DNA from: Plantactinospora alkalitolerans
GTDB taxonomy: Bacteria > Actinomycetota > Actinomycetes > Mycobacteriales > Micromonosporaceae
Assembly (NCBI RefSeq): GCF_015690345.1
Contig: NZ_JADPUN010000116.1
Span: 1-44,000 of the forward strand
Reading direction: 5' to 3'
DNA: 44,000 bases
This document shows, in pieces, positions 10,786 to 20,442 of the stretch (position 1 is its first letter; the number at the start of each line of letters is the position of its first letter). Position numbers and translations under genes: made by a program. A model generated the notes under the pieces. The model was not told where the DNA came from. It saw only the letters and a program-made list of their open reading frames with translations, and made no database searches.

Positions 10786-13707
10786 TCAGCGCGGTGCGAC
10801 CAGGCTCTCGATCACGAGCAGGCGGTCCAGCACGGGATCGACGTCGGGCCCGGTGAGGTCACCGATGATCCCGAGCGCCTCCAGGCAGCGGCGGCGGGCG
10901 GCCGGCCGGTCCCCTCGGGCCGCGAGGATGTCGGCGAGTACCGCAAGGCCGGCGGCCCGCCGGAGGGAGTCCGCGATACCGTCGCTGAGCGAGATCGCGG
11001 CCACGGCATGCTCCATCGCCTCCGGGTACCGGCCCAACGCGCGCTCGGCGTCGGCGGCGGTGACCAGGGTGTCGCAGCGGGTGGCGTCGTCCTTGGCCCT
11101 GACCTGGATCTGCAGCGCCAGCGTGCAGTGTCGCAGCGCGGCCTCCGGCTGACCGGTCTTCAGTCGCAGCGCGGCGAGCCGCCCGTGGGTCGCACCCTGG
11201 TCGCGCAGGGAACCGATGCGCTCCCGGATGAGCAGCGCCTCCGCGTAGCACCGGGCCGCCCGCTCGTACCTGCGTGACTGCTCGTAGGCGTCGCCCAACC
11301 GGTGCAGGCTGGCCGCCTGGCCGCCCGGGTTCCCGATGTCCCGACAGGTGGCCAGGACCCGCTCGAAGATGCCGATCGCCTTCCTGACCTCGCCGGTCTT
11401 CAGGTGCACGCTCGCCAGGTTGTGCGAGCAGACGCAGACGGCGGTGACGTTGTCCACCCGGTGCGCCAACCGCAGTCCGGCCTCGAACCCGCTGGCCGCC
11501 CGGTGGTAGTCGTGCAACGCGAAGAAGGTCCAGCCGAGGTTGTTGAGTGTTCCGATCTGGCCGATCTGGTGGCCGTCCGCCTCGGCGGCGGAGAGCGCGA
11601 CCTGATGCATGGCCAACACGTCGTCCTGCCGGCCGTACCGGCCGAACACGTCGTGGATCGCGCCGGGAATCTGCCACGCGTGCCGGTGGAACCCGCTGTC
11701 CGCCGCCGCCCGGACCACGGCGTTCAGGTTCGCCCGTTCCGCCTCGCACCAGCGCAGCGCCTCGTCGTCCGTACCGAAGCGGAGCGGCTCGACCGCCTCC
11801 GGTGTCGGCAGATCCGGGACCGGCGGGCGTTGCGGAGCCAGCAGGGCGGCGGCGTTGACCGCCGAGAGCAGGTACCAGTCGAGCAGTCGCCGGGTGGCGG
11901 CCCGGCGGGCCTCGGCGGCCTCGTCGTGCGCGGCCCGGTCCGCGGCGTACCGCCGGAGCAGGTCGTGCAGCCGGTACCGGCGAGCCGTGTCGTGGTTGAC
12001 CAGGTGGCGCTTGGCGAGCGCGTCGAGCAGGCGTTCCGTCCGCCTCGGGTCGGCGCCGAGCAGTGCGGCCGCGGCGGCGGAGCTGACGTTCCGGCCCGGA
12101 TGCAGGCCCAGCAGCCGGAACAGCCGGCCGGCCTCGGGGTCCAGTTCGTTGTAGGACCACGCGAAGACGGTGCTCAGGGTGGCGTCGTCCTCGTCCTCGT
12201 CACCGGCGGAGTCGAGCAGCCGGCTCCACAGTTCGTCGACGAGGTCCGCGATGCTCGCCCGGGACCGGGTGGTGATGTGCTCGCCGATGACGCGCAGCGC
12301 CAGTGGCAGTCCGCCGGAGAGTTGCGCGAGAACCTCCACCGGTCCCGGTTCGTCGGCCGCGCGCGCGGTGCCGATCACGTGACCGAGCAGGGTACGACGC
12401 TCGTCGTCCGGCAACGGCGGCACGGTGAGGCTGCGGATGCCCTGCCGGATGGTCAGGCTCTTGAGCCGGTTTCGGCTGGTTATCAGGGTCACACAGCCCT
12501 CGGCCGTGGGCAGCAGTGGACGGACCTGGTCGGAGTTCCGGACGTTGTCCAGTACGACGAGGATCCGCCGCCCGTCGAGCATCTGGTTGAAGCGTTCCCG
12601 GCGCTGCTCGCCACCGGTCGGTATCCGGTCGGCGGGTACGCCCAGCGCGTGCAGGAACCGGCCCAGGGCGTCCTCCGGATTCACCGGCGGAGTGGGCCCG
12701 TACGCGTCGGCACTGAGAAACAGTTGCCCCTCCGGGAACCGGTCGCGCTGTCGGTGCGCCCAGTGCACCGCGAGGGTCGTCTTGCCCACTCCGGGCATTC
12801 CGTCGACGACGACGATCCGGGCTCCCGCCGTCGGCGTTCCCAGCATCGCGTCGAGTTCGGCGAGAACCTCACGCTGCCCCGTGAAGTCGGAGATGTCGGC
12901 CGGCAACTGCTGCGGCGGCCGGAAAAGCACCGGCCCCCCGTCGGGCGTTCCCGGCGACGTACCGGGCGTCGATCGTCGATCTCTTCCGCGAAGTGGCGAC
13001 AGATCAATTGTCGGCTCGGCCCGCATTCTCCGCCGGTAACGGCTCCGGAAATCGACCGAGAAGCGGCGTGCCTCGTCATCGCGTCCACTCGCGTAGAGAG
13101 CGTTGATCCAAAGTTGTGCGAGAGTCTGATCCACATCGTTGGTCAACAGCAGCGGTTCCAGCCGACCGAGCACCGCGTCATGCTGCCCGATTCGGCTCTG
13201 GCTCTCACTGAGAAGCTTGTGCGCCGTCAGTAGCCCCTCTTTCATCGCGCGACGGATGTGTTCGGAGCGGGCGCCACGAAGATCGGCGAGCGGTTCGTCG
13301 CGCCACAGTTCGATCGCCTCGCACAGCAGTGCCGCCGACCGCTCGTGGCGGCCCTCCTCCGTCGCGCGGCGGGCCTGGTCGACGAGGCGCCGGAACCGGT
13401 GGTAGTCGACCAGTGCCGCGTCGACGTCGAGCCGGTACGCCTCGCTGCCCGGCATCCGGACGAGCGCGTTCGGCAGGCCGACCGCCTTCAGTACGGCCCG
13501 GCTGCGGCTGATCAGCGCCTGGAGATTGCCTCGACAGGCATCGAGCGACCGGTTTCCCCAGAGATGCTCGACGACCATGTCGACCTGAACCGGCCGACCC
13601 GCGTGATAGAGGAGTACGGCGAGCAGCCCGCGCTGTTTGGCCGCGCCCAACGGCACGGCCCGCCCGTCGATGTTGAGCGCCGTGGGGCCGAGGATGACGA
13701 ACTCCAC
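10786..13707 (-). CDS. SARP-family regulator with NB-ARC and TPR domains, AfsR-like (973 aa)
   Basis: GTG 13707 follows a GGAGGGA ribosome binding site. Domains in order: OmpR-type winged helix (about 1-95, starting MEFVILGPTALNIDGRAVPL), bacterial transcriptional activator domain (about 100-245, with DYHRFRRLVDQA), NB-ARC ATPase (about 270-540; Walker A GMPGVGKTT at 303-311, Walker B RILVVLDN at 381-388, then TSRNRLKS and SGGLPLALRV), a winged-helix/HD region with YRLHDLLRRYAADRAA, and TPR repeats (about 690-930). This is the AfsR/DnrI architecture: the ATPase senses a signal and the N-terminal domain binds direct repeats next to the -35 region. Such a repeat occurs at 13821-13842, in front of the divergent gene. 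No biosynthetic cluster is visible, so the target is probably local. Confidence 0.9.
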   Translation of the reverse strand: MEFVILGPTALNIDGRAVPLGAAKQRGLLAVLLYHAGRPVQVDMVVEHLWGNRSLDACRGNLQALISRSRAVLKAVGLPNALVRMPGSEAYRLDVDAALVDYHRFRRLVDQARRATEEGRHERSAALLCEAIELWRDEPLADLRGARSEHIRRAMKEGLLTAHKLLSESQSRIGQHDAVLGRLEPLLLTNDVDQTLAQLWINALYASGRDDEARRFSVDFRSRYRRRMRAEPTIDLSPLRGRDRRSTPGTSPGTPDGGPVLFRPPQQLPADISDFTGQREVLAELDAMLGTPTAGARIVVVDGMPGVGKTTLAVHWAHRQRDRFPEGQLFLSADAYGPTPPVNPEDALGRFLHALGVPADRIPTGGEQRRERFNQMLDGRRILVVLDNVRNSDQVRPLLPTAEGCVTLITSRNRLKSLTIRQGIRSLTVPPLPDDERRTLLGHVIGTARAADEPGPVEVLAQLSGGLPLALRVIGEHITTRSRASIADLVDELWSRLLDSAGDEDEDDATLSTVFAWSYNELDPEAGRLFRLLGLHPGRNVSSAAAAALLGADPRRTERLLDALAKRHLVNHDTARRYRLHDLLRRYAADRAAHDEAAEARRAATRRLLDWYLLSAVNAAALLAPQRPPVPDLPTPEAVEPLRFGTDDEALRWCEAERANLNAVVRAAADSGFHRHAWQIPGAIHDVFGRYGRQDDVLAMHQVALSAAEADGHQIGQIGTLNNLGWTFFALHDYHRAASGFEAGLRLAHRVDNVTAVCVCSHNLASVHLKTGEVRKAIGIFERVLATCRDIGNPGGQAASLHRLGDAYEQSRRYERAARCYAEALLIRERIGSLRDQGATHGRLAALRLKTGQPEAALRHCTLALQIQVRAKDDATRCDTLVTAADAERALGRYPEAMEHAVAAISLSDGIADSLRRAAGLAVLADILAARGDRPAARRRCLEALGIIGDLTGPDVDPVLDRLLVIESLVAPR

Positions 13708-13842: not shown

Positions 13843-13912
13843 CCACAAGTGCGTACACAACATTGTCTCCCACTCTTCTGTCGTCCCGATCGGACACAGG
13901 GGAGGACATGAA

Positions 13913-15130
13913 ATGAGTGCGCATGAATGGTCACGGGTGCCTATTGGCATCGATGCGTCCCGGTGGGTTACCCGAATTGGCTGTCGCAGCGTATTGATCG
14001 TTGCGCACACCATTGTCAGCTGCCAACGGCTCTTGGACGTCGCGGAACTTCTGGAGGAGGACCCGAGGGTGCAGACGGTCTTCACGGTTCCTCCGGACGC
14101 GTTCAACCGCGGGGTCACCCGACACCTACGTCGCCTCGGCGCGCTCGTGCTGCCGTGGGCGCAGGCTGTCCGGGAGAGATTCGACCTCGCGCTCGCGGCG
14201 GCGTACGGCGGCCTGTCCGACCTGCACGCGCCGCTGATGGTGATGGCCCACGGGGCGGGGTACGGCAAACCGACCCGGCCGACCGGCCGTGGCCCGGCGA
14301 TGTCGACCCTGCCGCCGGTCTACGGTCTCGACGCGCAACGGTTGACCCGCAACGGCGAGGTGCTGGCCGCGGCGATCGCGCTCTCCTGCGACGACCAGCT
14401 CGACATCCTGCGCCGGCAGTGCCCGGAGGCGCTGCCGGTGGCGGTGGTGACCGGGGACCCGTGCTTCGACCAGCTCGTCGCGAGCCTGCCGGAACGGGAG
14501 CGGTACCGACGGGCGCTGGGCGTCGACACCGAGCAGGAGCTGGTGGTGGTGAGTTCGACCTGGGGGCGGACGGGCCTGTTCGGGAACTGGCCGGACCTGC
14601 TGCCACTTCTGCTCGACCAGCTTCCCGCGCAGCGGTTCAGGGTCGCGGCCCTGTTGCACCCGGCCGTCTGGTGCGCGCACGGACACCGGCAGGTACGCGC
14701 CTGGCTGCGGAGCTGCCGCGAGGCCGGGCTGATCCTGCTGGACCCGGAGGAGGACTGGCGCAGCCTGGTCGTCTCGGCGGACCACGTCATCGGCGACCAC
14801 GGATCGGTCACGGCCTACTCGGCGGCACTGGGACGCAACGTCCTGCACCTCGCCCCGGGGCTGGAGGCCGTCACCGCCGGCTCGGCGCAGGAACTGGTCA
14901 TCAACAGCGCGAGCCGGCTGGACCCGCGCCGCCCCCTCCTGCCGCAACTGCGCTCGGTCCGTACCGTCGACCACGCGGCGGTGGCCGGGATGATCACCTC
15001 TCGGCCGGGCCAGGCCGGTCCGCTGCTCCGGCAGACCATGTACCGGTTGTTGCAGCTCACCGAGCCGGGTCGGCACCGCCGGGCGACACCGGTTCCGGTG
15101 CCTCGACTCCGGTCGGAGGTGACACGTTGA
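13913..15130 (+). CDS. Hypothetical protein with GT-B-like C-terminal half (405 aa)
   Basis: The ATG at 13913 follows the strong site GGGGAGGAC. No signal peptide or membrane helix is visible. The N-terminal half contains SVLIVAHTIVSCQRLLDVAE and VQTVFTVPPDAF, Rossmann-like strands. The C-terminal half has VVVSSTWGRTGLFGNW and then SADHVIGDHGSVTAYSAALG (about 288-307), which resembles the donor-site motif of CDP-glycerol glycerophosphotransferase-type GT-B enzymes (Asp, Ser, Tyr in the same order). I infer a transferase or epimerase-like GT-B fold; the substrate is unknown. It is divergent from the SARP gene across the SARP box and TTGA-coupled to the next gene. Confidence 0.65.
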   Translation: MSAHEWSRVPIGIDASRWVTRIGCRSVLIVAHTIVSCQRLLDVAELLEEDPRVQTVFTVPPDAFNRGVTRHLRRLGALVLPWAQAVRERFDLALAAAYGGLSDLHAPLMVMAHGAGYGKPTRPTGRGPAMSTLPPVYGLDAQRLTRNGEVLAAAIALSCDDQLDILRRQCPEALPVAVVTGDPCFDQLVASLPERERYRRALGVDTEQELVVVSSTWGRTGLFGNWPDLLPLLLDQLPAQRFRVAALLHPAVWCAHGHRQVRAWLRSCREAGLILLDPEEDWRSLVVSADHVIGDHGSVTAYSAALGRNVLHLAPGLEAVTAGSAQELVINSASRLDPRRPLLPQLRSVRTVDHAAVAGMITSRPGQAGPLLRQTMYRLLQLTEPGRHRRATPVPVPRLRSEVTR

Positions 15131-15657
15131 GCCCCGGGACCGGGCCGGTGATCGGGCACCTCGGGCCGGGGTCGGGGGAACCACGGCGCGGCGGCCTGGC
15201 GGACGTACTCGTCGGGGAGGCCGACCGCCGGTCCGCCGCGGAGCGTTGCGCGGACCTGTTCGGTCGGTATCCGGGGCTGACCCTCGTCCTGCTCCTCGAG
15301 GCCCGCGGACCCGCCCGAGGGCAACGGCTCGGCGGTCCGGGTGGGTACGCCGGGACAGCCCTCGACGGCCGGATGCGGCTCACCGCCGGGCTCCGTGACG
15401 GGCTGCTGTTGCGCCTGCGGTCCGGACGACCGGGCCGGTGCGTCCCGGTGCGGATCGGGGACGTCGCCCGGTGGCTCTACCTGCGCTGGTCGGTCGGGGT
15501 CGACCTGACCGGGTCAGCGGGGCGCGAGTTGGCCGACACCGCCGGCATCCGGCTCTCCGCCCGGGTCGACCGCTGGTCCGACCGGATTCTCCGGCCCGTC
15601 CGGCCCGAGGTCCCCGGCCGGCTCGTCGAGTCGGCGGCGGAGGCCGAGCGCCCGTGA
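15127..15657 (+). CDS. Hypothetical protein (176 aa), TTGA-coupled to the GT-B-like gene
   Basis: The TTG at 15127 overlaps the stop of the preceding gene (TTGA); GTG 15149 is out of frame. The frame then runs to 15657. The product includes GGLADVLVGEADRRSAAERC, YPGLTLVLLLEARGPARG, a Gly-rich stretch and VARWLYLRWSVGVDLTG, with no membrane segment and no motif I recognise. It is Arg/Gly-rich. The last 144 bp overlap the convergent NLR-like gene. Coupling and SARP-box context support a real gene; function unknown. Confidence 0.5.
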   Translation: MSPGTGPVIGHLGPGSGEPRRGGLADVLVGEADRRSAAERCADLFGRYPGLTLVLLLEARGPARGQRLGGPGGYAGTALDGRMRLTAGLRDGLLLRLRSGRPGRCVPVRIGDVARWLYLRWSVGVDLTGSAGRELADTAGIRLSARVDRWSDRILRPVRPEVPGRLVESAAEAERP

Positions 15658-17811
15658 GGAACCGAGCCGGATGAAGATCTCCAGTGCCTGAAGGTGGTAC
15701 GCCCGCGCGGCGACGGTCTCCCCGCGCCGCCGGGCGACCTGGCCGAGCTGGTCCAGAGCCTCGGCGTACTCGTGCTCCGAGCCGAGTTCCCGCATCCGCC
15801 GGGCGGCCTCGGTCGCGGCCCGCTCGGCTCCGGCCAGGTCATCCGTGCCGAGCAGGGCGCCCGCGAGCCCGATGAGCACCCGTGCCCCGTTGTGCGGGTC
15901 GACGTCGGCCAGCCCGGCGAAGATGACCTCCGCCTGTCGCAGCAGGACGGTCGCCCGCTCCGGCTGCCCCAGTCCGGTGAGCAACATGCCGAGGCTGATC
16001 AACGAAAGGCCGGTGCTCCGCTCGTCGCGCTGCTCCCGGTTGGCGTCGACGAGCCGGGAGAACATCTCGACGGCCCGATCCTCCCGCCCCGAGTCGCGGT
16101 ACAGCGCGGCCAGCCCCTCCTCGGCGTCGAGGCCCCCCCGGATGTCGCCGGCCTCCCGGTACCGGAGGATCGCATCCCGGATGTGCCGCTCGGCGGCCTC
16201 GTGGTCACCGAGCTTGGTGCAGACCCGGCCGAGACGTTTCAGCATGTCGGCCTCGGCCCAGGGGTCGCCCCACGACCGCGCCGCCTCGACGCCACGCTGG
16301 TCGATCTCCAACCGGTCCCGATAGTGCTTGCGGTGCAACAGCAACGGCCAGGTCACGTCCGAGAGTTGCCAGGCCAGTGCGGCATGCCCGTGGCGCAGCG
16401 CGGTCCGCCCCGCGCCGATCAGGTTGACCCGTTCACGCTCCAGCCAGTCCAACGCCTCCTGCCGGTCGGCGAACCGGGGCAGGTTCCACGGCCGGGTCAG
16501 GTAGCCGTACGGCAGCCGCCGACGGTACGGCGTCACGACGAGATCGGCCTCCCTGGCCGCGGCGAGATACCACTCCAGGATCCCGCGCAGTACCGCCTGC
16601 CGTTCCGGTTCCGGCTCGTCCCGCTCCAGTTTCTGTCGGGCATGCAGTCGAACCAGGTCGTGGAACCGGAAGTGGCCCTCCGTCACCTCCTCGAGCAGGC
16701 TCGCCTCGAGCAGTGCCTCCAGCATCGCGTCCGCCCGCGTTCCGGGGTCGTTCGGGTCCGTCTCCCCGGACGGGTCCCCGGTGTTCCCGTCCTCCGCCGG
16801 TAGCAGCGCGGCGGCCACACCCGCACCGAACTCGGGCCCGGGATGCAGTGCCAGTCGCCGGTAGAACCTCGCCACGTCCGGTTGCAGGGAGCGGTACGAG
16901 ATGTCGAAGGTGGCCTGGACCGACAGTCCGTCCGTCCGGGAGAGCCGGCTCAGCCGGTACGTCTCGGAGGCCAGGTCGAGCGCCATCCGCCGTACGGAGA
17001 GACGGGGCCGGGCCGCCAACCGGGCGGCGGCGACACAGAGCGCGATCGGCAGGCCGGCACAGATGTCGGCGATCTGGGCGGCTTCGACGGGCTCCCGGTC
17101 GATCCGTCCCGCCCCGGTCGCCCGGGACAGCAGCAGGACGGACTCGGCCGGGCACAGCGGCGCCAGGTCCACCAGCCGGGCACCGTCGGCGACCAGCCCG
17201 ACGAGCCGGACCCGGCTGGTGACCAGCACGCCGGACCGCCCGGCCGGAAGCAGCGCCCGTACCTGGGCGGTCGAGTACGCGTTGTCCAGCAGCACCAGGA
17301 GGGTCCGCTCGGCGGTGACCGACCGGTACAGCGCCACCTGCTCGGCGAGGGTGACCGGGACCCGCTGCGGAGCCGTCCCGAGCGCCCGGAGAAGTTCACC
17401 CAACGCCTCGCTCGGATCGACGGGGTCATTTCCGCCGAATCCGCCCAGGTCCACGTAGAGCTGCCCGTCCGGAAAACGGTCCCGCGCATTGTCGGCCCAT
17501 CGCACCGCCAGTGCGGTCTTGCCAACTCCACCAGGCCCGAGGAGCACGACGAGAGCCGGTCCCGCGGTCCGGAAAAGCGCGTCGATATCGGCTAGCTCCG
17601 CAGTTCTCGCCACGAAGTGCGGGGACGGAGTCGGCAGTTGTCGCGGAATCGGCGACGTGTCCGGAGAGGCTTCGTGAATATGTACGCCACCGTGAATCGC
17701 ACCGGCTTGCAGACTCGGCCCGTACACCGTTCCGGACATCGCATTGGACGTACCCGTTTCCGGCCTCTCCGGGCCGCCCGCGTACTGGTCGTCGCCGCGC
17801 CGCTGCCGCAC
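15514..17811 (-). CDS. NLR-like NB-ARC/TPR protein with N-terminal amyloid-type motif (765 aa)
   Basis: GTG 17811 follows a strong GGAGGTG site. Residues 23-45 carry a Gly/Ser-rich motif (NAMSGTVYG, then QAGAIHGGVHI) matching the C-terminus of the preceding small protein. NB-ARC follows (about 65-330): FVARTAELADIDALF, Walker A GPGGVGKTA at 92-100, Walker B LLVLLDN at 171-177, VLVTSR at 195-200, CAGLPIALCV near 251-260, and a winged-helix tail with the NLR-like HD motif FRFHDLVRLHARQ near 381-393. TPR repeats fill about 490-730. There is no DNA-binding domain, unlike the SARP protein, so it is a signal-sensing STAND ATPase, not a regulator of the AfsR type. The C-terminal tail is low complexity and overlaps the convergent gene. 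Operon with the 17844 gene, 32 bp apart. Confidence 0.85.
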   Translation of the reverse strand: MRQRRGDDQYAGGPERPETGTSNAMSGTVYGPSLQAGAIHGGVHIHEASPDTSPIPRQLPTPSPHFVARTAELADIDALFRTAGPALVVLLGPGGVGKTALAVRWADNARDRFPDGQLYVDLGGFGGNDPVDPSEALGELLRALGTAPQRVPVTLAEQVALYRSVTAERTLLVLLDNAYSTAQVRALLPAGRSGVLVTSRVRLVGLVADGARLVDLAPLCPAESVLLLSRATGAGRIDREPVEAAQIADICAGLPIALCVAAARLAARPRLSVRRMALDLASETYRLSRLSRTDGLSVQATFDISYRSLQPDVARFYRRLALHPGPEFGAGVAAALLPAEDGNTGDPSGETDPNDPGTRADAMLEALLEASLLEEVTEGHFRFHDLVRLHARQKLERDEPEPERQAVLRGILEWYLAAAREADLVVTPYRRRLPYGYLTRPWNLPRFADRQEALDWLERERVNLIGAGRTALRHGHAALAWQLSDVTWPLLLHRKHYRDRLEIDQRGVEAARSWGDPWAEADMLKRLGRVCTKLGDHEAAERHIRDAILRYREAGDIRGGLDAEEGLAALYRDSGREDRAVEMFSRLVDANREQRDERSTGLSLISLGMLLTGLGQPERATVLLRQAEVIFAGLADVDPHNGARVLIGLAGALLGTDDLAGAERAATEAARRMRELGSEHEYAEALDQLGQVARRRGETVAARAYHLQALEIFIRLGSSRALGLRRRLDEPAGDLGPDGPENPVGPAVDPGGEPDAGGVGQLAPR

Positions 17812-17843
17812 GGGGCACCTCCAGGGTCGACGTGGGAGGGGGG

Positions 17844-18218
17844 TCAGAACGAGACGTCGCCCCGGATGTCCCGAGCCTGGACCACCCGGTCGGCACTACC
17901 GCTGAACTGGTTGATCACTCCGCCGGTCTCCGCCGACGGCTCCCCCGCGCCGTCCCGCCAGAGCGCCTGCACCCGCTCCTCGAGGTCGGGGTCGGCGGCC
18001 AACAACCGGGCGAGCGCCTCGGCGAGGTCGGCCCGGTTGGTCTCGTCGGGATTCGCGACCGCCGCGTCCAGAGTGTCCTCGCCCCTTCCCTCTGTTCGGA
18101 AACGGTTTCGGACCAGGCGGTAGAGCTGCCCGAGCAGACCGCCACCACCGGCGATGAGCGCTTCTCCGCCCTTGGTCGCCAATCCGGTCGCGATGGCCAG
18201 AACAAGTTGATCCTGCAT
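17844..18218 (-). CDS. Small helical protein with C-terminal amyloid/RHIM-like motif, putative NLR partner or effector (124 aa)
   Basis: ATG 18218 is preceded by a GGGGGAAC site. Residues 1-40 contain hydrophobic, Gly-rich helices (QDQLVLAIATGLATKGGEAL, then IAGGGGLLGQLYRLVRNRF) that could insert into or associate with membranes. Residues 48-88 form an acidic helical region (DTLDAAVANPDETNRADLAE and following). After a flexible stretch the last 22 residues read NQFSGSADR, then VVQARDIRGDVSF, matching the N-terminus of the NLR-like protein: both have SG, then QAxxIxGxV and a hydrophobic residue. Such shared motifs connect NLRs to small effectors of the HeLo/Bell type through amyloid templating. 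I infer that role here; the N-terminal fold is not proven. Confidence 0.7.
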   Translation of the reverse strand: MQDQLVLAIATGLATKGGEALIAGGGGLLGQLYRLVRNRFRTEGRGEDTLDAAVANPDETNRADLAEALARLLAADPDLEERVQALWRDGAGEPSAETGGVINQFSGSADRVVQARDIRGDVSF

Positions 18219-19089: not shown

Positions 19090-19156
19090 AACCAACTAGG
19101 TCGAGCCCGGGCGGCACCACGCCCAGGGCCCGGCCGTCGGCGGGCGGGTCGGCGTG

Positions 19157-19516
19157 ATGGAGGACGGGCGACCGATCTTCCTTCAGATCGCGGAGCTGAT
19201 CGAAAACTCGATCATCGACGGCACGCTCACCGAAGAGGGCCAGGTGCCCTCGACCAACGAGTTGGCGGCGTTCCACCGGATCAATCCGGCCACCGCGGGC
19301 AAGGGCGTCAACCAGCTGGTGGACGACGGGATTCTCTACAAGAAGCGAGGTATCGGCATGTTCGTCGCCACCGGCGCCCGCGCGAAACTGCGGGACCGTC
19401 GTCGTGAGGAATTCGCCCAGCAGTTCCTGCATCCGCTGCTCACCGAGGCGAGCAAGCTCGGCATCGACGCCGACGACCTCAAGCGAATGATCGACCGATG
19501 GGAGCAGGGGCGATGA
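19157..19516 (+). CDS. GntR-family regulator, YtrA subfamily (119 aa)
   Basis: ATG 19157 (GTG 19154 directly before it is an alternative) gives MEDGRPIFLQIAELIENSII. The winged helix continues with LTEEGQVPSTNELAAFHRIN, PATAGKGVNQLVDDGIL, and the wing YKKRGIGMFV. The rest is a short helical tail (to residue 119), lacking the large FadR or HutC effector domain; this length and tail define the YtrA group, which usually represses its own ABC transporter operon. The stop overlaps the ATPase start (ATGA). Likely autorepressor acting at 19070-19089. Confidence 0.9.
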   Translation: MEDGRPIFLQIAELIENSIIDGTLTEEGQVPSTNELAAFHRINPATAGKGVNQLVDDGILYKKRGIGMFVATGARAKLRDRRREEFAQQFLHPLLTEASKLGIDADDLKRMIDRWEQGR

Positions 19517-20442
19517 GCACGGTGGTGAGCGCTCAGGGCATCACCAAGCGGTTCCGGGACGTGACCGCCCTGGACCAGATCAGTTTCTCGCTGGCGGAAA
19601 ACAAGATCCACGGGCTGCTCGGCCGGAACGGGGCCGGCAAGACGACCCTGATGCAGATCATGACCGGCCAGGGATTCGCGACGTCAGGAAACATGACGAT
19701 CTTCGGTCAGTCGCCGTACGAGAACGAGACCGTGATGGCCCGGGTCTGCTTCATCAAGGAGAGCCAGACCTATCCGCAGCACTTCAAGGTCCGGCACGCG
19801 CTGGAGTCGGCCCGGCTCCTCTTCCCCGATTGGGACGAGGAGTTCGCGCAGGCACTGCTGGCGGACTTCCGGCTGCCGCTCGGCCGGCACATCCGGAAGC
19901 TGTCCCGAGGCATGCATTCCATGCTCGGCATCATCATCGGACTCGCCTCCCGGGCCCCGCTGACCCTCTTCGACGAGCCGTACCTCGGCCTCGACGCCGT
20001 CGCCCGGCACCTCTTCTACGACCACCTGCTCACCGACTACGCCGAGCATCCCCGCACGGTCGTCCTCTCCACCCACCTCATCGACGAGGTCGGCGAGCTG
20101 ATCGAGCACGTACTCCTGCTCGACCAGGGGCGGGTGCTGCTCGACACCACGGCCGAGGCCCTGCGCGGCCAGGTTGTCACCGTCGCCGGGCCGGCCACGG
20201 CCGTCGACGAGTTCGCCGCGAACAACGAGGAACTGCACCGCGAGCGCCTGGGCCGGTACGCCCGGGCGACCCTGCGCGGCACCTTCGGCCCGAGCGAACG
20301 GGCCCAGGCGAAGGGGCTCGGACTCGACATCGAGGCGGTCTCCCTCCAGGACATCGTCATCCGGCTCACCACCTCGCAGGCAAAGACCGGCGGCACGACC
20401 AGCGGCAGCGCCGCCAGCACCCCGAAGGAGACCGTCCGATGA
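19513..20442 (+). CDS. ABC transporter ATP-binding protein, YtrB-like (309 aa)
   Basis: The ATG overlaps the regulator's stop. SAQGITKRFRDVTALDQISF begins the NBD; Walker A GRNGAGKTT at residues 37-45, a degenerate signature LSRGMHSML near 135, Walker B LTLFDEPYLGLD near 157-168, and the switch region VVLSTHLIDE near 190. The signature LSRGM replaces LSGGQ, common in this subfamily. The last 90 residues form a regulatory tail typical of ABC-2 type exporters. Energises the permease at 20516. These GntR-ABC operons often respond to cell-envelope antibiotics or related stress; no substrate can be read from the sequence. Confidence 0.9.
   Translation: MSTVVSAQGITKRFRDVTALDQISFSLAENKIHGLLGRNGAGKTTLMQIMTGQGFATSGNMTIFGQSPYENETVMARVCFIKESQTYPQHFKVRHALESARLLFPDWDEEFAQALLADFRLPLGRHIRKLSRGMHSMLGIIIGLASRAPLTLFDEPYLGLDAVARHLFYDHLLTDYAEHPRTVVLSTHLIDEVGELIEHVLLLDQGRVLLDTTAEALRGQVVTVAGPATAVDEFAANNEELHRERLGRYARATLRGTFGPSERAQAKGLGLDIEAVSLQDIVIRLTTSQAKTGGTTSGSAASTPKETVR

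What the first reader, a model, noticed from the sequence alone, without database searches (positions are those of the whole stretch)
15514..18218. Two-gene NLR-like module with matching amyloid/RHIM-type motifs: candidate undescribed cell-death or conflict system
Seen directly: a 124-residue protein (17844-18218) ends with NQFSGSADR then VVQARDIRGDVSF, and the NB-ARC/TPR protein encoded 32 bp downstream begins with NAMSGTVYG then QAGAIHGGVHI. Both have SG followed 7-8 residues later by QAxxIxGxV and a hydrophobic residue. The motif is C-terminal in the small protein and N-terminal in the ATPase. Established: bacterial NLRs and small HeLo/Bell-like effectors encoded next to them can share short amyloid-forming motifs (BASS motifs described by Dyrka, Saupe and colleagues), and mammalian RHIM works similarly. 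Inference: the TPR-sensed signal opens the NB-ARC switch, exposes the motif and templates the small protein, whose Gly-rich hydrophobic N-terminus then damages a membrane. The ATPase has no DNA-binding domain, which separates it from the SARP next door.
Basis: partly seen in the sequence, partly recalled or inferred. Interest (0 to 1): 0.85.

Follow-up and report, generated by a model that had tools for sequence, protein, structure and literature searches.

The report
Bacterial NLR–effector pair sharing amyloid-like motif
Two neighbouring genes in an actinobacterium encode an immune-receptor-like switch protein and a small helical protein that carry the same short tag, which fits a known kind of bacterial signalling pair thought to control cell death.

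Summary
The 124-residue protein ends in NQFSGSADRVVQARDIRGDVSF; the NB-ARC/TPR protein starting 32 bp later carries NAMSGTVYGPSLQAGAIHGGVHI near its N-terminus. A motif model built only from other genera finds these two places in the 9.2 Mb genome at E=6.1e-10 and 1.4e-8; the next hit is E=0.39. In 354 genomes of the family, 112 of 146 motif hits lie within 3 kb of another (0.2 expected by random placement), including 54 small-plus-large ORF pairs. AlphaFold (two-sequence alignment) gives helices to residue 90 and a low-confidence tail holding the motif. Three loci have the helical domain on an NB-ARC-type protein with no motif hit. This matches the described NLR/Bell/BASS pairs (passages), so it is not an undescribed kind of system. 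RHIM is the wrong label. Amyloid state and membrane damage are inferred only, and I found no cognate-specific motif matching. The pair lies in a conserved four-gene block with a glycerophosphotransferase-like gene and the SARP gene; one library search listed no paper on that block.

The parts
17844..18218 (-). Small Bell-like protein, 124 aa: helices to about residue 90 plus low-confidence C-terminal tail
   Evidence: ORF; no Pfam match above cut-off, no NCBIfam match; AF2 helices 2-22, 28-43, 47-55, 59-75, 77-90, residues 97-124 pLDDT below 50; match in 85 of 354 family genomes, own genome included
17847..17912 (-). Effector-side motif NQFSGSADRVVQARDIRGDVSF at the very C-terminus
   Evidence: Genome-wide E=6.1e-10 with a model from other genera; N103, G107, Q114, G120 invariant in 51 aligned relatives (five divergent ones left out); 2 of 22 residues differ from L006 against 46 of the first 95
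15514..17811 (-). NLR-like STAND protein, 765 aa: N-terminal motif, NB-ARC, TPR repeats
   Evidence: Pfam NB-ARC E=4.4e-8 and TPR_12 E=1e-16; dN/dS about 0.28 (0.032/0.114) to the closest relative L036
17677..17745 (-). Receptor-side motif NAMSGTVYGPSLQAGAIHGGVHI
   Evidence: Genome-wide E=1.4e-8 with a model from other genera; 3 nucleotide and no residue differences to L036 in 24 codons
17812..17843 (-). 32-bp spacer with a Shine-Dalgarno-like GGAGG before the GTG start, fitting one transcript (inference)
   Evidence: Sequence
13850..15130 (+). Convergent glycerophosphotransferase-like gene, third member of the conserved block (frame used from 13850; first in-frame ATG/GTG 13913 or 13937)
   Evidence: Found convergent to the NLR in 19 of 21 short-tail loci, window included; one match in the own genome at E<=0.001; PF04464 at E=0.01-0.02, below cut-off, in 2 of 4 proteins scanned, not in the window's own
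10786..13707 (-). SARP-NB-ARC-TPR regulator gene, fourth member of the conserved block; no motif hit
   Evidence: BTAD, NB-ARC, TPR; the N-terminal part of this protein matches beyond the third gene in 17 other loci (39-98% identity); no motif hit here

Best explanation
A two-gene NLR-effector signalling module of the published bacterial amyloid-signalling (BASS/Bell) kind. The TPR region senses an unknown signal; the NB-ARC switch oligomerises and brings the N-terminal motifs together; these nucleate a cross-beta stack that recruits the same motif at the C-terminus of the small helical protein; the clustered helical domains then act, most likely on the membrane, to kill or arrest the cell. 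Shown here: domains, conserved pairing, shared motif private to the pair in this genome, a predicted disordered tail, selection on both genes, and motif-free fusions. Inferred: oligomerisation, amyloid state, templating, trigger, membrane action and cell death.
For: A model from other genera finds these two adjacent places and nothing else below E=0.39 in the genome. In 354 genomes, 112 of 146 motif hits are within 3 kb of another, 54 small+large pairs, 0.2 expected by random placement in 7 Mb. Of 61 family loci looked at, 58 have a motif-bearing small ORF and 50 of these also a motif-bearing partner ORF (model trained on these loci). Small-protein and NLR domain distances correlate (r=0.64, 0 of 5000 permutations), though common descent alone can give that. 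Motif is the most conserved segment. AF2. Fusion L089 confirmed by Pfam; L225 and L226 by the small-protein model (22.7 and 18.7 bits) ahead of a P-loop; none has a motif hit of 9 bits or more. NLRs with neither motif hit nor small-protein hit: L214, L216, L217, L220, L221, L224. L223 has a separate small protein, and its NLR N-terminus reads NEFSGSGSAGAVVQAGYHLGDVIV by eye, below 9 bits. Published architecture (passages).
Against: No amyloid or toxicity data. Cognate motifs are not more similar than non-cognate ones (family 0.484 vs 0.497; partial Mantel r=0.066, 846 of 5000). First helix is not a clear transmembrane helix. 34 of 146 motif hits are solitary. Seven loci keep the NLR motif with no clear small partner in the fetched DNA: L193, L194, L198, L199, L200, L201, L218. 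With the family-trained model, only 9 of 25 class-level loci with a motif-bearing small ORF showed a partner. Published BASS/Bell profiles could not be run. The AF2 model rests on two sequences.
Confidence: 0.75

Rival explanations
1. The shared motif is a non-amyloid docking element: the two tails bind each other, or a third protein, as short peptides, and the NLR recruits the small protein without a templated fibre.
For: In the window's branch the two sides differ systematically (small protein QARD and often GD, NLR mostly QAG and HGGVH), and cognate pairs are not more alike than non-cognate ones. In L047, L054 and L056 the Asp sits on the NLR side (QA[LV]DI) while the small protein has S or T, as if complementary.
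Against: In many loci of the other branch both sides read QARDV. Published relatives of this architecture form fibrils or foci (BASS3; passages).
Confidence: 0.18
2. The NLR is an AfsR/SARP-like regulator that lost its DNA-binding domain, and the small protein is its regulatory partner; the block controls the phosphotransferase-like gene rather than cell death.
For: AfsR model match below cut-off (342.7 of 1430 bits); conserved block with a SARP and an enzyme-like gene.
Against: Most loci of the long-tail branch have small protein, motif and NLR with no such gene in about 4.5 kb either side (L062 and L064 do have it). The NLR has no DNA-binding domain in Pfam.
Confidence: 0.1
3. The resemblance is a chance or compositional match between two Gly/Val-rich stretches.
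Confidence: 0.01

Closest known systems
BASS / Bell / NLR bacterial amyloid signalling pairs (Dyrka et al. 2020 J Mol Biol; not held, seen only through passages of PMC8086366, PMC7889193, PMC12261475, PMC9815663)
   Same: Adjacent genes; motif at the C-terminus of a small helical protein and the N-terminus of an NLR; actinobacterium
   Different: Which BASS family, or whether a new one, could not be tested; extra conserved neighbours (phosphotransferase-like gene and SARP)
Fungal HET-S/HELLP/NLR amyloid signalling and mammalian RHIM
   Same: Logic: receptor motif templates effector motif
   Different: Motif sequence differs; RHIM core absent; small domain not shown to be homologous
Effector-associated domain (EAD) pairing in bacterial STAND systems (Kaur et al. 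2020, 2021; seen in passages of PMC10907252 and PMC8195603)
   Same: Receptor and effector carry matching adaptors encoded nearby
   Different: EADs are described as adaptor domains; here the shared part is about 23 residues, predicted disordered in the small protein
AfsR/SARP STAND regulators
   Same: NB-ARC plus TPR core
   Different: No BTAD or winged-helix DNA-binding domain in this protein

Membership tests
BASS/Bell NLR amyloid module | NB-ARC/NACHT receptor with repeat region | tested here: met
   Pfam NB-ARC and TPR
BASS/Bell NLR amyloid module | Receptor and effector genes adjacent or overlapping, conserved | tested here: met
   in the long-tail branch the partner is usually divergent, about 1 kb away
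BASS/Bell NLR amyloid module | Same short motif at effector C-terminus and receptor N-terminus | tested here: met
BASS/Bell NLR amyloid module | Small effector is a helical bundle | tested here: met
   AF2, two-sequence alignment; fold comparison not possible
BASS/Bell NLR amyloid module | Hydrophobic transmembrane-type helix in the effector | tested here: inconclusive
   Best 19-residue mean 1.44 in the window; 9 of 51 relatives reach 1.6
BASS/Bell NLR amyloid module | Match to a published BASS1-10 or Bell profile | not testable with these tools
   Profiles not held; source paper not held
BASS/Bell NLR amyloid module | Motif forms amyloid and propagates as a prion | not testable with these tools
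   Needs bench work
RHIM | (I/V)Q(I/L/V)G core tetrad (recalled) | tested here: not met
   Window motifs read VQAR and LQAG; no RHIM family in the Pfam scan at E<=1
EAD adaptor pairs | Matching folded adaptor domains in receptor and effector | tested here: not met
AfsR/SARP regulators | DNA-binding and BTAD domains | tested here: not met
   Absent from the 765-aa protein, BTAD present in the neighbour

The most novel reading that the evidence does not exclude
The unit is not two genes but four: a SARP-NB-ARC protein, a glycerophosphotransferase-like enzyme, an amyloid-motif NLR and its small effector form one conserved defence or development locus, in which the enzyme is a guarded target, second output or signal maker. 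The effector has switched repeatedly between being fused to the receptor without the motif and being a separate protein recruited through the motif.
Probability: 0.3. Interest if true: 0.65.

Novelty: new member of a known kind. Interest (0 to 1): 0.45.

Why it matters
The biological role of microbial NLR amyloid cascades is called a major blind spot in a 2021 review (PMC7889193, passages). This locus has a motif pair unique in its genome, a stable gene neighbourhood and natural fusions that bypass the motif. That gives a clean genetic test of whether the motif is a replaceable bridge, and a candidate third component to test.

Tried and rejected
RHIM label: rejected, core absent. Chance: rejected. 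Pair-specific homotypic matching: tested, not supported (one search was an earlier version with wrong core extraction and 52 of 59 pairs; one core, L059, is still mis-set). Separation from the SARP: the gene order argues otherwise. Orphan small proteins: many proved to have a divergent motif-bearing partner that my first P-loop pattern missed. Plasmid and viral-contig searches with the small protein: no relatives. PDB sequence searches with the phosphotransferase-like protein, the small-protein profile and the motif profile: none, four at E 0.18-0.85, and one at E 0.093, none convincing. Fold comparison could not be run. Alternative effectors: L206 holds a TIR-like protein and a 247-aa protein with related tail motifs (TIR by eye; Pfam was run only on the 247-aa one, no match).

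Full report
CHECK. The two ORFs, the 32-bp spacing and both motif strings are as reported. The NLR has Pfam NB-ARC and TPR. The small protein has no Pfam match above cut-off (best E=0.052) and no NCBIfam match. Of 51 aligned relatives, at most 3 match any one Pfam family at E<=0.01, and none an NCBIfam family. A Shine-Dalgarno-like GGAGG precedes the NLR's GTG start.

IS IT MORE THAN CHANCE? Yes. Cross-side models with the window and L036 left out (L006 kept) each pick the other gene as second best in the window (17.0 and 15.5 bits; next 7.6 and 4.7). A motif model from other genera only, 28 copies, finds the two places in the 9.2 Mb genome at E=6.1e-10 and 1.4e-8, then 0.39. With models that hold copies of the genus the values are similar. 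In six of seven genus genomes, 20 motif hits are listed at E<=0.5, 16 of them in same-locus pairs (that model holds copies from this genus).

RELATIVES. Small-protein matches occur in 85 of 354 family genomes (E<=1e-3, own included) and 55 of 394 genomes drawn from the class (E<=1e-5, own included). Motif hits at E<=1e-4 number 146 in 74 of 354 genomes. 112 lie within 3 kb of another hit: 108 in 54 small+large pairs and 4 between ORFs both under 310 aa. 34 are solitary (23 small, 11 large). Random placement in 7 Mb gives 0.2. Of 61 family loci looked at, 58 have a motif-bearing small ORF and 50 of those a motif-bearing partner ORF; of 40 class-level loci, 25 and 9, with a model trained on the family. 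In the window's branch the small protein ends with the motif and the NLR usually follows directly. In the other branch the small protein has a short extra tail and the NLR is usually divergent, about 1 kb away.

ANATOMY. I aligned 51 of the 56 relatives, leaving out L068, L074, L076, L077 and L078 as divergent; of these L074 and L077 lack the second half of the motif. In the 51 the invariant positions are D76 and the motif's N103, G107, Q114 and G120. Against L006 (60% identical) the motif differs at 2 of 22 residues and the first 95 residues at 46. AF2 with a two-sequence alignment gives five helices to residue 90 and residues 97-124 below pLDDT 50; mean pLDDT 73.4, pTM 0.64. dN/dS to L036 is about 0.48 (small protein, only 7 nucleotide differences) and 0.28 (NLR). 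The first helix is moderately hydrophobic, short of a clear membrane helix.

COMPARATIVE GENETICS. In L089 the helical domain is fused to NB-ARC/TPR in one 803-aa protein. L225 and L226 show such an N-terminus (22.7 and 18.7 bits) on P-loop proteins with similarity to the NLR; Pfam was not run on them. None of the three has a motif hit of 9 bits or more. NLR homologues in L214, L216, L217, L220, L221 and L224 have neither a small-protein hit nor a motif hit; L219 and L222 are cut or fragmentary and cannot be judged. Against the trend, L193, L194, L198, L199, L200, L201 and L218 have the NLR motif and no clear small protein in the fetched DNA. So the motif tends to be present when the effector is a separate protein, with exceptions; I made no formal test.

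NEIGHBOURHOOD. Among 21 short-tail loci (window, L006, L036-L051, L054, L056, L057), 19 have the phosphotransferase-like gene convergent with the NLR. In 18 of those 19 (window included) the N-terminal, DNA-binding end of a SARP follows, divergent from it; L006's DNA ends before that point. L049 is a short contig. In L046 the NLR is divergent and the third gene, outside the fetched stretch, is stop-interrupted. The gene has one match in the own genome. Of the 74 relatives I entered, 22 of 31 at 55% identity or more lie within 6 kb of a small-protein hit, 2 of 9 at 45-55% and 6 of 34 lower. Of 20 further loci with this gene and no small-protein hit nearby, 13 have an NLR- or SARP-type homologue in 11 kb and 7 have none, so the gene also lives without the pair.

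AGAINST. Cognate motifs are not closer than non-cognate ones; the partial Mantel test is reached by 846 of 5000 permutations for the family, 1007 for the non-redundant family set and 1397 for all pairs. Motif variation is small and the test is weak, but it gives no support to private matching. The strong domain-domain correlation could reflect common descent alone. Oligomerisation, amyloid formation, trigger and output are untested.

KNOWN WORK. I saw passages of PMC8086366, PMC12261475, PMC7889193, PMC9815663, PMC7885112, PMC10907252 and PMC8195603; a term search in PMC7159879 found none of amyloid, RHIM, SARP, HeLo, glycerophosphotransferase. They describe ten BASS families in neighbouring Bell C-termini and NLR N-termini, mainly in actinobacteria and cyanobacteria. 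The founding paper is not held. A search for five motif words found no paper. The listings showed no title on this motif, and that none on the four-gene block; most subscription papers are not in the library. I could not assign a BASS number and claim none.

HOST. One genome of the window's genus has a contig of the same length and hit position as Plantactinospora endophytica NZ_BONW01000002.1, so a Plantactinospora-like actinomycete is inferred.

VERDICT. A genuine, well-conserved member, by architecture, of the published NLR/Bell/BASS kind, with a conserved four-gene setting that deserves study.

Noticed in passing
window 13850-15130 (+) with 10786-13707 (-): Glycerophosphotransferase-like gene and SARP gene form a conserved block with the pair across several genera.
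   Followed up: yes
L089:2510-4921 (-); L225:1515-4070; L226:1921-4251: Small-protein-like helical domain fused to NB-ARC-type proteins, without a motif hit.
   Followed up: partly
L161, L163: The small protein's tail carries a second, different motif (around RDVIGTQNN) that the adjacent P-loop protein's N-terminus resembles.
   Followed up: no
L206:4370-6249: A 247-aa protein and a TIR-like protein carry related tail motifs (NVVQARDIHGGVVMGD and AVLARDIYGDVILGD) next to a STAND-like gene.
   Followed up: partly
L204:4593-5661: Two small motif-bearing ORFs in tandem near one NLR.
   Followed up: no
L047, L054, L056: The motif's Asp sits on the NLR side instead of the small-protein side.
   Followed up: partly
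window about 15001-15657 (+): An open frame overlapping the NLR 3' end on the other strand matches L036, L006 and weakly L050; a small convergent gene or a by-product of NLR conservation.
   Followed up: no
window 19154-20442 (+): GntR-type regulator beside the pair matches only L036 and L006 of the loci searched; the ABC ATPase gene matches them closely (88-91%) and five others weakly.
   Followed up: partly
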